Shown: in pieces, positions 59,305-63,649 of the stretch
How positions within the stretch are numbered: position 1 is the stretch's first letter
Layout of the letters: every line of letters begins with the position of its first letter
From: Microcaldota archaeon
GTDB taxonomy: Archaea > Micrarchaeota > Micrarchaeia > Micrarchaeales > CABMGC01
Direction of reading: 5' to 3'
NCBI GenBank assembly: GCA_021796225.1
Contig: JAJYOL010000004.1
Span: 41,026 to 105,025, forward strand
Length of the DNA stretch: 64,000 bases
Program-made: the position numbers and the translations under genes
The notes under the pieces: generated by a model
The model's database searches: none
Seen by the model: only the letters and a program-made list of their open reading frames with translations
What the model was told of the DNA's origin: nothing

Positions 59305-61221
59305 CTACATCCTGTCTACGACATCTATGCCCAACAGGCGCAGCATGTCCTTTATCACGGACATTGTTGCGGCGACGAGCGTTACCCTCGCGTCGAGCAG
59401 TTTTCCGGAATTCAGCACCGGCGAAGTTTCATAGAATTTGCTGAATGAAGATGAAACGTCAATGAGATAATCCGTGATTACATTCGGCCTGTATTCAGCA
59501 CATGCCTTTTCCAAGATATCACTGGATTCGGAAAGGAGTTTTATCAAACCGAATTCCGCAGAACTGTCAACTCCTGAGTAATCAACTTTCTCCGGACTCG
59601 GTATGCCGATGCCTGCCTTTTCAATTATCCTGCCTGCCCTAGTATACATGTACATGCAGTACGGTCCGCTGTTTCCGCCAAAATCGAGAGCTTTGTCCCA
59701 GGAGAATGTAAGGATCTTTTCCGGAGCTATCTTTAGAAATTCAAATTTTATTGCTCCCGCAGCTATCACGTTTGCCGTATTATCATCTATGTCTCCCTTT
59801 GTCTTCCTGCTGCTTTCGGCCACTTTCTCCCTTACCTTGTTTTTTGCTTCGTCCATCAGGCTGTCCGCTGTGAAACTCTTCCCTTCGCCTATCCATCCGC
59901 CGCTCCGTCCGCTCAAAGATCCGCTTTCAAGTGCAACCTCGCCGTACGCGACATGCATTATGTTTTTCGCCTGTTCCGGATAGCCCATGAGGCTGAAAAG
60001 CGCCTTGAGAATCAACTGCGAGTATCTCTGTGCGGAGCCGATTACGTTAACCGCTATGTCCGTGTTTCCAAAACTTCCCTCGTTTCCCTTTTCTGCAGTC
60101 GTGAATAACTGTTTTCCATTGCGCTGTTTGCGATCCGTTGCGGAATAATGGAATTCGTCCTTCAATAACCCGAATTTCCACATGTGAAATGCCAAATCCT
60201 TTGCGGAATAGGTTGCGGTTCCGTTGCTCCTTATGAGTACTTTCGTATCCTCTGCGGGGTTCTTGAAATCCATTTCAACTTCCTTCATTTTTTCAAGGTC
60301 CACTACTATGCATCCGGCATATTTTCCTTCGCTTTCCTTATGAAGTACGCCTTTTTTCATTCCGACATCGATGGCGGCTTCGAGAAGTTTCGCCCTTACA
60401 ATATCGCTTTCCCATATCCTCAAATCGTGCGATATTCCGTAATTGAATGCTGTTTGATACTGCGCGTCGACGCATTTTTCACTGACTTCACGGGCAAGCT
60501 TTGATTCCTTGGTGTCGAGATTTTCCATATTCTTCAATATGCCGTTTATCTCTCCCGAAATGTCCTTCTCCTTCATGAGTTTGTTTACCTTGACGTATTG
60601 CTCTCCGAGCCACTGGTCGAACTTCTTATCCGGCGTGTCACTCAGATTCATATATCCCCATATGCTTTCCGCTATCTGGAGTCCTAAATCTTCAATGTAA
60701 TCGTCCCGTTCCACCTTGTATCCGCACCGCTCCATTATGTTTGCAATGGAATCCCCGAGAAGCGCATTCCTCAAATGTCCTATGTGCCACGGCTTGCTCG
60801 GATTGACGCTCGGAAATTCTACAAGCGCTTTTTTACCCGAACCGAGATTGCTCGAAGCGCCTTCCTTCTCTTTTTCCAGTATTTCAGCCAGGACGTTTTT
60901 CGAATATTCCTTGACATCAAAATAAGCGTTTATGTATCCGTTTTCGTTTTCCACTTTCATTATCGGGGACCTTGCTTCAATCGCTTCCGCAACTGATTTT
61001 GCAATGTCCTTCGGGGCCTTTCCTACCTTTTTTGCCAGCATGAAGGATATCGAAGAACTGATGTCGCCATGCGCTTGTTTTTGTCCCGATATGCTTGCGG
61101 TTATTTTCTCCATAGGGATATCCGCATCGGGATATGCCTTGCTTATCACATTGCTAAGCATTTGTGAAAACAATTGCCTTGTCGACTTTCCATAACTGAC
61201 CGTGAAATCACTTATTAACAT
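59305..61221 (-). CDS. argS: Arginyl-tRNA synthetase
   Basis: VEFPSVNPSKPWHIGHLRNALLGDSIANI; C-terminal anticodon-binding domain ending LLGIDVVDRM. Confidence 0.95.
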   Translation of the reverse strand: MLISDFTVSYGKSTRQLFSQMLSNVISKAYPDADIPMEKITASISGQKQAHGDISSSISFMLAKKVGKAPKDIAKSVAEAIEARSPIMKVENENGYINAYFDVKEYSKNVLAEILEKEKEGASSNLGSGKKALVEFPSVNPSKPWHIGHLRNALLGDSIANIMERCGYKVERDDYIEDLGLQIAESIWGYMNLSDTPDKKFDQWLGEQYVKVNKLMKEKDISGEINGILKNMENLDTKESKLAREVSEKCVDAQYQTAFNYGISHDLRIWESDIVRAKLLEAAIDVGMKKGVLHKESEGKYAGCIVVDLEKMKEVEMDFKNPAEDTKVLIRSNGTATYSAKDLAFHMWKFGLLKDEFHYSATDRKQRNGKQLFTTAEKGNEGSFGNTDIAVNVIGSAQRYSQLILKALFSLMGYPEQAKNIMHVAYGEVALESGSLSGRSGGWIGEGKSFTADSLMDEAKNKVREKVAESSRKTKGDIDDNTANVIAAGAIKFEFLKIAPEKILTFSWDKALDFGGNSGPYCMYMYTRAGRIIEKAGIGIPSPEKVDYSGVDSSAEFGLIKLLSESSDILEKACAEYRPNVITDYLIDVSSSFSKFYETSPVLNSGKLLDARVTLVAATMSVIKDMLRLLGIDVVDRM

Positions 61222-61352
61222 GTCCTATTTAGGTTTAAATTGCTTGCTCTAAACGTGCTATTTACTAGCAGTTAACTATCCTGCAAATCTGAACTACATA
61301 GCAACTTAAATATGAGAATAGGCGCAATTTTCATTGTGGAGAAGGTGAGAAT

Positions 61353-62669
61353 ATGCTAACTCTAATAAAGGAAAACCCCCAAAAATCCACTGAGCTTAGA
61401 GGAGTCAAAGGGCTTCTCGAAGTATTCAATTTAATAAATCCATATGGTCGTTGGCCTGTCGAATTGAAACTTCTCAATTCTCGTCTCGAAAGCTTGAAAT
61501 ACTCACTCCAGGATATAGAGAAACTGTGCCCTGAAATAGCGATAACCCCCAATACAGGTTATTTTATCTCTGCTGCAATTAATAACAAAATCGAGGACGG
61601 CGAGACCGTTACGTTGAACTTCAATGGGGCAAAAGTGGATGCAATTGGACGTTTTCGTAAAGGAAATGTGATATTGAAGGGGGATGCAGGAAGTCATGCT
61701 GGAGCGTATATGTCTGGTTCTGCCCGACTCACCATATACGGAAATACTGGGGGATTTGCAGGAGAAGAGATGTCTGGTTCTTCTAAACTTACAATCTATG
61801 GGAATACGAAAGCGTACTTAGGTAACGGAATGAAAGGATCCGCCAGTATCACAGTATACGGAAACGCGGAATACTATGTGGGGGGAGGAATGTCTGGGTT
61901 TTCCCAACTTACCATCCACGGAAATATTACAGAAAAAGTAGGTACTGGGATGAGTGGCTCTGCACATATCATATTATATCCAAACCCTGATTCAGAATTC
62001 AATTTACCTGGTCTTTATGCTAATTTACTAGTTGATCTAGGAGAAAAGTCGTATGGTGGTAGAATAGACGTAAACCCTCCAGAAGGGATGGAGATGCCTG
62101 TTTCTAAAACGTCACACTACGCAGAAATATATACGAATGGCAAGCGTGAACCTACAAACATACTACGTTCCCAACTTAGCGATATTAGCAGAAAACGTTC
62201 TTTACTTAGTGAAGTTTTCAGGAAGATTGAAGGAAAAAATGATTCGTCTGTGGATGCTACTCACGTAATTAGAGAATATGTAAATGAAAGCGGGCTGGTT
62301 TACAGAGGTCTTTCTTTTTATGATGAAGAGGAGCGATCTGAAATCCTATCCCTTGCCCTTACAAAGGGTCTTTTACCTCCAGAGATAGTAAAATATAGTG
62401 GTAAGGGATATGATGGCCAGGTGTGTGTAAGTGCTCTTCTTTACGAATCAAAATGGTTCGCCGACGTTGATTATGGCATTATTTTTGTGATAGGTGCAAA
62501 GGGTTTGGAACTTGCCGACGTATTACATACCAAACAATATATACATGAAGCAGAAATGCGTATCGAATATATACCTCCTGAGAATATAAAAGGGTATTAT
62601 CTGGTTAATTCTAAGGAAATTGCGGGTTATACCGAGGTCAATTCCTACAACGGTCAACAAAGCACATAA
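61353..62669 (+). CDS. GXGXG-like repeat protein with possible ADP-ribosyltransferase-like C-terminus
   Basis: Five exact 20-aa repeats (M-[SK]-G-[SF]...[YH]GN); C-terminal VYRGL ... VSALLYESKWFA ... EAEMRIEYIPPENIKGYYLV; low-GC gene. Confidence 0.65.
   Translation: MLTLIKENPQKSTELRGVKGLLEVFNLINPYGRWPVELKLLNSRLESLKYSLQDIEKLCPEIAITPNTGYFISAAINNKIEDGETVTLNFNGAKVDAIGRFRKGNVILKGDAGSHAGAYMSGSARLTIYGNTGGFAGEEMSGSSKLTIYGNTKAYLGNGMKGSASITVYGNAEYYVGGGMSGFSQLTIHGNITEKVGTGMSGSAHIILYPNPDSEFNLPGLYANLLVDLGEKSYGGRIDVNPPEGMEMPVSKTSHYAEIYTNGKREPTNILRSQLSDISRKRSLLSEVFRKIEGKNDSSVDATHVIREYVNESGLVYRGLSFYDEEERSEILSLALTKGLLPPEIVKYSGKGYDGQVCVSALLYESKWFADVDYGIIFVIGAKGLELADVLHTKQYIHEAEMRIEYIPPENIKGYYLVNSKEIAGYTEVNSYNGQQST
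61683..61985 (+). repeat. Intragenic 60-bp (20-aa) repeat array
   Basis: Repeat Met at residues 120, 140, 160, 180, 200. Confidence 0.85.
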
Positions 62670-62791
62670 CGTCAATATCAACAGCAAATCCTTACTTATT
62701 CGAAGAACGCCTGTACGATACGACTTACAAAACCTTTTAAATTTTGCATGGGATACGATAGTTGCAGGTAACTGAAGATGCAGGTAAGCGA

Positions 62792-63649
62792 ATGGTAAAG
62801 ATATACAAATATAACAACAAACTGGCAATATACCTGCCTTTTGACGTAATAAAAGCTTTAAAACTCGAGGAGAACGACGAAGTCGATTTCTTCAAGATGA
62901 AGGATAACATGTTCATCCTTGCCAAGAAAGCTGATATAACATCATTGCTTGTGGGAAATGCTCCAAGCACGCCTTCATATTCTCCTGTCGCTTCGGATGA
63001 AATGTCCGGTCCCGAGATAGCCGTACTGAAGAAGCTCGACACGCTGCGCTATCAGCAAAGAACGCAGGAAAACGTGGAAAAAATGCTTTCTCCTGAAGAG
63101 AAATCTTACTTGTCACAGTTGCTCAAGAAAAAAGCAGTCACGCTTTTTTCAAATCAAAAAAGCGGGCAGAAGATATACAGCATATCGAAAGGCGTTTATG
63201 ATACTTTTCTGATGCGAAAGCGTCCGCAGGGCGCCGTTGCCGTGCAGCAACCGGTTCCCGTTCCGCGCCAGGTCCCTCAAACAAGATATCCTATACAAAA
63301 AATGGGGCTTGAGGATGAAGGCGTCAAAAAACTCGAAGCCGAAGGATTCATAGTTCTGCAAACCGAAGCGGAAGCGGCTCATGTCTCATCCCTATTGGAA
63401 GACAGCATAAGGCACGGGCAGGTATTCGGAACACGTGCATTCAATAAAAAGTTCTACATACTGATGCGCGCATTTTTGGAGAAGAATTCTGGAGCAATCC
63501 TGAAAGAACTGAGATCCGGGACCAAAAAGGTGTCCGAAATAGTCGAGTCGACAAAAATACCCGAAGGGGGAGTAAGAGGCGTACTTTATTATCTTGCAGA
63601 ATCGGGCGACGTGATAGAAAAAAGACGCGATACGTTCATGCTCACTTAA
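62792..63649 (+). CDS. SpoVT/AbrB-like N-terminal domain protein with winged-helix-like C-terminus
   Basis: MVKIYKYNNKLAIYLPFDVIKALKLEENDEVDFFKMKDNMFILAKK; C-terminal KVSEIVESTKIPEGGVRGVLYYLAESGDVIEKRRDTFML. Confidence 0.65.
   Translation: MVKIYKYNNKLAIYLPFDVIKALKLEENDEVDFFKMKDNMFILAKKADITSLLVGNAPSTPSYSPVASDEMSGPEIAVLKKLDTLRYQQRTQENVEKMLSPEEKSYLSQLLKKKAVTLFSNQKSGQKIYSISKGVYDTFLMRKRPQGAVAVQQPVPVPRQVPQTRYPIQKMGLEDEGVKKLEAEGFIVLQTEAEAAHVSSLLEDSIRHGQVFGTRAFNKKFYILMRAFLEKNSGAILKELRSGTKKVSEIVESTKIPEGGVRGVLYYLAESGDVIEKRRDTFMLT

What the first reader, a model, noticed from the sequence alone, without database searches (positions are those of the whole stretch)
61353..62669. Low-GC gene: perfect 20-aa GXGXG-like beta-helix repeats plus possible ADP-ribosyltransferase-like C-terminus
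Residues ~110-210 form five in-register 20-aa repeats (Met at 120/140/160/180/200; e.g. GEEMSGSSKLTIYGNTKAYL). They resemble the GXGXG beta-helix of glutamate synthase or FwdC, but here they are not attached to a known enzyme. The C-terminal ~115 aa contain VYRGL, VSALLYESKWFA and EAEMRIEYIPPENIKGYYLV. Their order is reminiscent of R-S-E type ADP-ribosyltransferases, which is an inference from motif pattern only. The gene is visibly more AT-rich than its neighbours, suggesting acquisition. A repeat-scaffold plus modifying-enzyme layout would fit an effector or toxin used between symbiont and host.
Basis: partly seen in the sequence, partly recalled or inferred. Interest (0 to 1): 0.75.

Follow-up and report, generated by a model that had tools for sequence, protein, structure and literature searches.

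The report
Archaeal β-helix protein with ADP-ribosyltransferase tail
A recently gained gene in a tiny, probably host-dependent archaeon joins a stack-like structural protein, known from a methane-making enzyme, to what looks like an enzyme that tags other molecules with ADP-ribose, a tool often used in microbial warfare; no such enzyme family turned up in the papers searched for this group of archaea.

Summary
ORF 61353-62669 (438 aa) has five in-register 20-aa repeats (residues 103-202) and is AT-rich (GC3 0.33; mean of the window's long ORFs 0.53, s.d. 0.06). The genome is a Micrarchaeota bin. Residues 79-206 are homologous to the FwdC β-helix (TIGR03122, E 7.5e-18).

The C-terminal ART guess, made from motifs alone, survives its tests. 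Homologues occur in 13 of 165 genomes of the order and none was found elsewhere in the phylum. R318 is conserved in 11/12, S/T360 in 12/12 and E401 in 12/12. A modest AlphaFold model (pLDDT 56) finds almost only ART-fold proteins at the top of PDB and viral libraries (Tpt1 first). A profile match links the family to the phage T4 ADP-ribosylases ModA/ModB. No Pfam, NCBIfam, PHROG or PADLOC model names it.

The gene fills a slot between argS and an AbrB-HTH gene that holds 46 bp in the closest relative. The fusion occurs only here; elsewhere in Micrarchaeota the ART has other N-termini and the β-helix protein stands alone, in up to 11 tandem copies.

Best reading: a mobile R-S-E mono-ADP-ribosyltransferase on a β-helix scaffold, probably a conflict effector. 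Delivery into a host is not supported: no signal peptide, TM helix, recognised immunity gene or macrodomain was found.

The parts
61353..62669 (+). Whole ORF, 438 aa: FwdC-like beta-helix plus ART-like domain
   Evidence: intact single copy in G000
61470..61658 (+). Head of the beta-helix domain (residues 40-102): 'YSLQDIEKLCPEI..TGYFISAAINNKIEDGETVTLNFNGAKVDAIG', shared with stand-alone Micrarchaeota homologues
   Evidence: Y50, G69, F71, S73, A75-N77 and I80 invariant in 10 sequences
61659..61958 (+). Five 20-aa GXGXG beta-helix repeats (residues 103-202)
   Evidence: periodicity; TIGR03122 E 7.5e-18 (residues 79-204); PDB 8rja_C FwdC E 2.4e-11; PF01493 E 6.8e-5
61959..62153 (+). Degenerate last repeat and C-terminal cap (residues 203-267), 'YGGRIDV..AEIYTNGKR' as in stand-alone homologues
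   Evidence: A4 model covers residues 3-267
62241..62666 (+). ART-like domain (residues 297-438)
62304..62306 (+). R318 in VYRG, predicted NAD+-binding Arg (R of R-S-E)
   Evidence: 11/12 conserved; collinear with the YRG of T4 ModB
62430..62432 (+). S360 (S of R-S-E), VSAL
   Evidence: S or T in 12/12; collinear with the SFT motif of ModB
62547..62555 (+). E399-A-E401, predicted catalytic ExE
   Evidence: E401 12/12; E399 position Glu in 9/12
61247..62717 (.). Segment present here and replaced by 46 bp in the closest relative G005; the neighbours' promoter-like AT stretches flank it on both sides
59305..61221 (-). argS (arginyl-tRNA synthetase), conserved left neighbour
   Evidence: name assigned from sequence; synteny
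62762..63649 (+). AbrB/MazE-N plus HTH-C regulator-like gene, conserved right neighbour present in all 13 genomes tested, so not a partner specific to the ART gene

Best explanation
The gene encodes an R-S-E-type mono-ADP-ribosyltransferase (residues ~297-438) tethered to a FwdC-type right-handed beta-helix (residues ~40-267). It arrived as a ~1.5-kb insert in the argS/AbrB intergenic slot. Steps shown by computation: FwdC-homologous beta-helix; a homologous ART-like family with conserved R, S/T and E; ART-like predicted fold; remote profile match to phage ADP-ribosylases; patchy distribution; insertion (or clean loss in the relative). Steps inferred: it binds NAD+ and transfers ADP-ribose (E-x-E suggests arginine or another macromolecular target, by analogy with ModA/ModB); the beta-helix is a rigid docking or oligomerisation scaffold that positions the ART on its target; the biological role is conflict (an intracellular anti-virus or growth-arrest effector more likely than an exported toxin).
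For: Beta-helix. ART: homologues in 13/165 genomes of the order (confirmed); R318, E401, Y317, G319, F322, F369 lead the 139 scored columns, S/T360 in 12/12; AF2 model with the order helix-b(YRG)-helix-b(SAL)-b-b-b(EAE)-b; Foldseek PDB top hits Tpt1 (E 4e-4, prob 1.00), cholera toxin A, CC0527, Scabin, ScARP, pierisin; viral-library hits with informative names include DarT, RNA 2'-phosphotransferase, an ADP-ribosyltransferase and a PARP; hhalign to T4 ModA/ModB relatives prob 84%, E 7.2e-6, collinear on YRG and S, against 0.2% for ModA/B versus the beta-helix control. Conflict-type behaviour: patchiness, low GC3, near-empty site in G005; homologues beside a TnpB gene (named from sequence) and near an AbiEii homologue; mostly unrelated N-termini among homologues.
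Against: The AF2 model is modest (pLDDT 55.8, TM about 0.4), and a second model of the stand-alone homologue was uninformative (pLDDT 51.7; Tpt1 only rank 2 at E 1.4). The profile match covers R and S but stops before the E motif. The window protein departs at two well-conserved non-triad positions (Asp in most, G381 here; Tyr in most, H392 here). No toxicity, export or partner evidence. The only close pair of homologues (G019/G050) differs by 1 synonymous and 3 non-synonymous codons, too few to show constraint.
Confidence: 0.6

Rival explanations
1. Exported or contact-delivered effector: the beta-helix carries the ART into a host or competitor archaeon, where it modifies a macromolecule.
For: Micrarchaeota are generally host-associated (PMC8975820, PMC12892359); ARTs are common toxin domains of polymorphic and host-directed toxins (PMC3482391); ART homologues carry different N-termini.
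Against: No hydrophobic N-terminus or TM segment (maximum 19-residue Kyte-Doolittle 1.25; N-terminus 0.33); no recognisable immunity or secretion gene next door; stand-alone beta-helix relatives occur without ART; polymorphic toxins are rare in archaea (PMC3482391).
Confidence: 0.15
2. Intracellular defence or toxin-antitoxin-like ART: it ADP-ribosylates viral or own macromolecules on infection and the beta-helix is the sensor or scaffold.
For: Patchy, acquired, unnamed ART family; homologues near TnpB and AbiEii genes; ART domains act in antiviral and T-A systems (PMC9503650); the gene sits alone in a variable slot.
Against: No PADLOC match, no macrodomain antitoxin in any of 13 ART-bearing genomes, no recurrent partner gene.
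Confidence: 0.4
3. A catalytically dead or non-ADP-ribosylating domain with the ART fold, used as an NAD(P)- or nucleic-acid-binding module.
For: G381 and H392 replace residues conserved in most relatives; one family member (L046) has Thr for the Arg.
Against: R, S and ExE are all kept in the window protein.
Confidence: 0.15
4. Not an ART at all: an unrelated alpha/beta domain in which the YRG/S/E order is coincidence.
For: Low-confidence model; no Pfam or NCBIfam ART hit.
Against: Three partly independent lines agree: family conservation, fold search, and profile match to ModA/ModB.
Confidence: 0.1

Closest known systems
Phage T4 ModA/ModB NAD-protein ADP-ribosyltransferases (R-S-E ARTs)
   Same: Collinear YRG, S-x and FA motifs over 82 profile columns (hhalign prob 84%, E 7.2e-6); both have an E-x-E/EQE motif in the expected place
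   Different: About 13% identity in the aligned stretch; archaeal; fused to a beta-helix; different E-motif surroundings (EAEMR against EQEWM)
Tpt1/KptA, cholera toxin A, Scabin and pierisin structures (ART fold)
   Same: Top fold matches of the model
   Different: TM about 0.3-0.4; no sequence relationship found; Tpt1/KptA is placed in the H-H-h clade (own knowledge), not R-S-E
Formylmethanofuran dehydrogenase subunit C (FwdC, TIGR03122; GXGXG, PF01493)
   Same: Residues 79-206 align with the FwdC beta-helix (E 7.5e-18; PDB 8rja_C E 2.4e-11)
   Different: Scores half the equivalog cut-off (64.7 against 130.65 bits); carries a C-terminal ART; belongs to a Micrarchaeota family of stand-alone, often tandem genes
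Polymorphic toxins with ART warheads (PMC3482391)
   Same: C-terminal ART joined to a repeat-containing N-terminal part; patchy
   Different: No trafficking domain and no immunity gene found; the ART is the constant part and the N-terminus varies

Membership tests
ART superfamily, R-S-E clade | Split beta-sheet core of two three-stranded units (PMC9503650) | tested here: met
   AF2 order H-b-H-b-b-b-b-b, Foldseek top hits ARTs; model confidence modest
ART superfamily, R-S-E clade | Conserved Arg on the first core strand | tested here: met
   R318, 11/12
ART superfamily, R-S-E clade | S(T)S / Ser-Thr on the second core strand | tested here: met
   S/T in 12/12; a full ST[ST] only in L039 and L042, 'SA' in the window
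ART superfamily, R-S-E clade | Catalytic Glu (often [QE]xE) | tested here: met
   E401 12/12; Glu at -2 in 9/12
ART superfamily, R-S-E clade | NAD+-dependent ADP-ribosyl transfer | not testable with these tools
   needs biochemistry
ART superfamily, R-S-E clade | Sequence-profile similarity to a characterised R-S-E family | tested here: met
   hhalign to ModA/ModB set, prob 84.3, E 7.2e-6; control 0.2; the local match stops before the Glu
Curated ART families (Pfam, NCBIfam, PHROGs, PADLOC) | Hit to a curated ART model | tested here: not met
FwdC (TIGR03122 equivalog) | Score above the family cut-off | tested here: not met
   64.7 against 130.65 bits; homologous repeat domain, not an FwdC
FwdC (TIGR03122 equivalog) | Genomic link to other Fwd/Fmd subunits | not tested
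   immediate neighbours are argS and AbrB-HTH; other Fwd subunits were not sought in the genome
GXGXG beta-helix domain (PF01493) | Tandem GXGXG-type beta-helix turns of about 17-20 aa | tested here: met
   below the Pfam gathering score (22.9 against 32.5) but E 6.8e-5 and supported by TIGR03122
DarTG-type ART toxin-antitoxin | Macrodomain antitoxin | tested here: not met
   no PF01661 in G000 (83% complete) or 12 other ART-bearing genomes
Polymorphic toxin | N-terminal trafficking or secretion signal | tested here: not met
   no hydrophobic segment, no recognised trafficking domain in Pfam
Polymorphic toxin | Adjacent immunity gene | tested here: inconclusive
   neighbours are conserved genes present without the ART; an unknown or distant immunity protein cannot be excluded

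The most novel reading that the evidence does not exclude
Micrarchaeota run their own polymorphic conflict system, in which a lineage-specific ART module is swapped among unrelated N-terminal carriers, one of them the FwdC-type beta-helix that these archaea have separately amplified into tandem arrays with a shared leader; the beta-helix would be the delivery or assembly part.
Probability: 0.12. Interest if true: 0.85.

Novelty: new variant of a known kind. Interest (0 to 1): 0.55.

Why it matters
ADP-ribosyltransferases are classic conflict enzymes, but searches of the open-access library found no paper joining them with Micrarchaeota or DPANN, and polymorphic toxins are considered rare in archaea (PMC3482391). 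How DPANN symbionts act on hosts and how they fight viruses is largely open. A defined ART family with a predicted catalytic triad, present in named bins (MAS1.bin63, REEA73), gives a concrete testable enzyme. The fusion also shows that the FwdC β-helix has been reused outside C1 metabolism, in a family that Micrarchaeota amplify heavily without an assigned role.

Tried and rejected
Pattern-based scans of genome contigs and viral contigs with the window's C-terminus found nothing; A3 recovered two named Micrarchaeota loci and no viral ones; the window's β-helix part found no viral relative. tblastn found no homologue in phage records and only a weak β-helix match in one plasmid. A glutamate-synthase origin of the repeats was dropped: FwdC models match and no glutamate synthase model did. 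The profile search of A2 against PDB sequences gave only chance TIM-barrel matches. The second structure job, on the stand-alone homologue, was of low quality and its fold search is not used as support. A MoxR-vWA ternary-system reading was considered because two distant relatives of the β-helix domain lie beside such genes (L131, L133), but nothing of the kind is near the window gene. The AbrB-HTH neighbour as cognate antitoxin was rejected because it is present in all 13 genomes tested, none of which has the window's fusion gene. No flanking direct repeat marks the insertion.

Full report
Observation. Residues 103-202 are five 20-residue repeats with Met at 120, 140, 160, 180 and 200; identity at lag 20 is 0.41, against a best of 0.23 at any lag in 2000 shuffles. 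GC3 is 0.33 against 0.53 (s.d. 0.06) for 58 long ORFs of the window.

Where it is. The window lies in a 789-kb, 15-contig genome. Its close relatives include bins titled 'Candidatus Micrarchaeota archaeon' (the contigs of two homologues, MAS1.bin63 and REEA73).

The repeat part. Pfam PF01493 GXGXG (E 6.8e-5), NCBIfam TIGR03122 FwdC (E 7.5e-18, residues 79-204) and solved FwdC 8rja_C (E 2.4e-11) identify it as a FwdC-type β-helix. It fails the FwdC equivalog cut-off, so it is a homologue of the repeat domain and not an FwdC. A profile of it (A4) finds relatives in 20 of 303 Micrarchaeota genomes; 83 ORFs match in the fetched regions, including 11 in tandem in G199 (L111). Apart from the window's ORF, and one distant flavoprotein-type ORF (G241) that also has a long extra C-terminus, none carries a further C-terminal domain of note. 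One homologue (L110, 484 aa) has a 237-aa unassigned N-terminal extension.

The C-terminal part. The first relative found was a stand-alone 191-aa ORF in G041 with VYRG, SAL, FA and EAEVR conserved. The two-sequence profile then found the family in 13 of 165 genomes of the order (two weak hits discounted), and a 12-sequence profile found no convincing further member in the other 138 genomes of the phylum that are held (the profile was trained on the order, so more remote relatives may be missed). Of 139 alignable columns, F369, F322, Y317, G319, R318 and E401 are the most conserved; S360 is S or T in all. Single-sequence scans give no named family.

Fold. AlphaFold with three rows gives pLDDT 55.8 and pTM 0.58 with the strand and helix order of an ART. 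Foldseek against PDB ranks Tpt1 first (E 4e-4, probability 1.00), then cholera toxin A, the CC0527 protein, Scabin, ScARP and pierisin. Against viral models the informative names include DarT and RNA 2'-phosphotransferase near the top, with an ADP-ribosyltransferase and a PARP lower down. As an independent sequence test, a profile of T4 ModA/ModB and phage relatives was aligned to the family by hhalign: probability 84%, E 7.2e-6, YRG on YRG and the SFT motif on SA; the same phage profile against the β-helix alignment gave 0.2%. The model of the G041 homologue was too poor to add anything. Together the ART assignment is likely (about 0.9); catalytic activity is probable but untested.

Acquisition. 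argS and the AbrB-HTH gene are neighbours across the genus and beyond. In G005, the closest relative by these two proteins, they are separated by a short spacer; in several other relatives one or both of an HD-domain-type and an NAXD-type gene (named from sequence) lie between them. Alignment of the G005 spacer to the window shows both flanks preserved and 1471 bp (61247-62717) here in place of 46 bp. Either an insertion here or a clean loss in G005 fits; low GC3 and absence of the fusion from the rest of the genus favour insertion.

How it may work. Shown: β-helix homology, the ART-like family with its triad, the variable slot. Inferred: NAD+ binding through R318 and S360, catalysis by E401, an arginine or other macromolecular target from the ExE motif, and the β-helix as scaffold. 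Its role is most economically a conflict effector: the family is patchy, unnamed, has mostly unrelated N-termini (only L039 and L042 share theirs, besides the near-identical G019/G050 pair), and some members lie beside a TnpB gene or near an AbiEii homologue. Whether it acts inside the symbiont (defence or growth arrest) or in another cell is open; the lack of any hydrophobic segment and of a recognised delivery partner makes the intracellular reading more likely. No macrodomain was found in 13 ART-bearing genomes, so a DarTG-type pair is not supported.

Novelty. The parts are of known kinds; the ART family and the joining of a FwdC-type β-helix to an ART appear undescribed as far as the held literature and libraries reach.

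Noticed in passing
L111:3273-11764, L113, L117, L119, L126, L135 (genomes G199, G186): Tandem arrays of up to 11 FwdC-like beta-helix genes, many with short overlaps of start and stop, most sharing a ~45-aa leader (ALAMAKGF.RY.PE.E..VRK.EV). No function assigned; a strikingly amplified family in tiny genomes.
   Followed up: partly
L117:2640-3428(-), L111:11765-12556(-), L134:6752-7555(-): A second protein family without Pfam hit sits in the same arrays and carries the same ~50-aa leader as the beta-helix proteins (phmmer E 1.2e-17 over residues 1-76), so the leader is a module joined to two unrelated bodies, possibly a targeting signal.
   Followed up: partly
window:10321-10905(+): A 194-aa ORF of the window belongs to that second family (35% identity over 159 aa, E 3.8e-21, to L066:15280-16044, which lies about 7 kb from the stand-alone ART gene of G041).
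   Followed up: partly
L131:4548-8671(-), L133:4918-9257(-): In G179 and G180 a beta-helix gene lies next to a large protein (weak vWA match in G179 only) and a gene that is a MoxR-like AAA ATPase in G179 (Pfam AAA_lid_2/AAA_5), by position and look the same in G180; this resembles MoxR-vWA ternary conflict systems (PMC7159879).
   Followed up: partly
L165, L166, L167, L168, L174 between argS and the AbrB-HTH gene: The slot holding the ART gene here carries an HD-domain phosphohydrolase-like and an NAD(P)H-hydrate dehydratase-like gene in most of the genus; both are missing from it in the window and in G005 (names from sequence only).
   Followed up: partly
L076:1910-3844: In G122 the ART homologue follows a RIO/protein-kinase-like gene (PF01163 E 3e-4) with almost no spacer, suggesting an operon of two modifying enzymes.
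   Followed up: no
window:985-2049(+): The most AT-rich long ORF of the window (GC 0.341, GC3 0.313), another candidate for recent acquisition.
   Followed up: no
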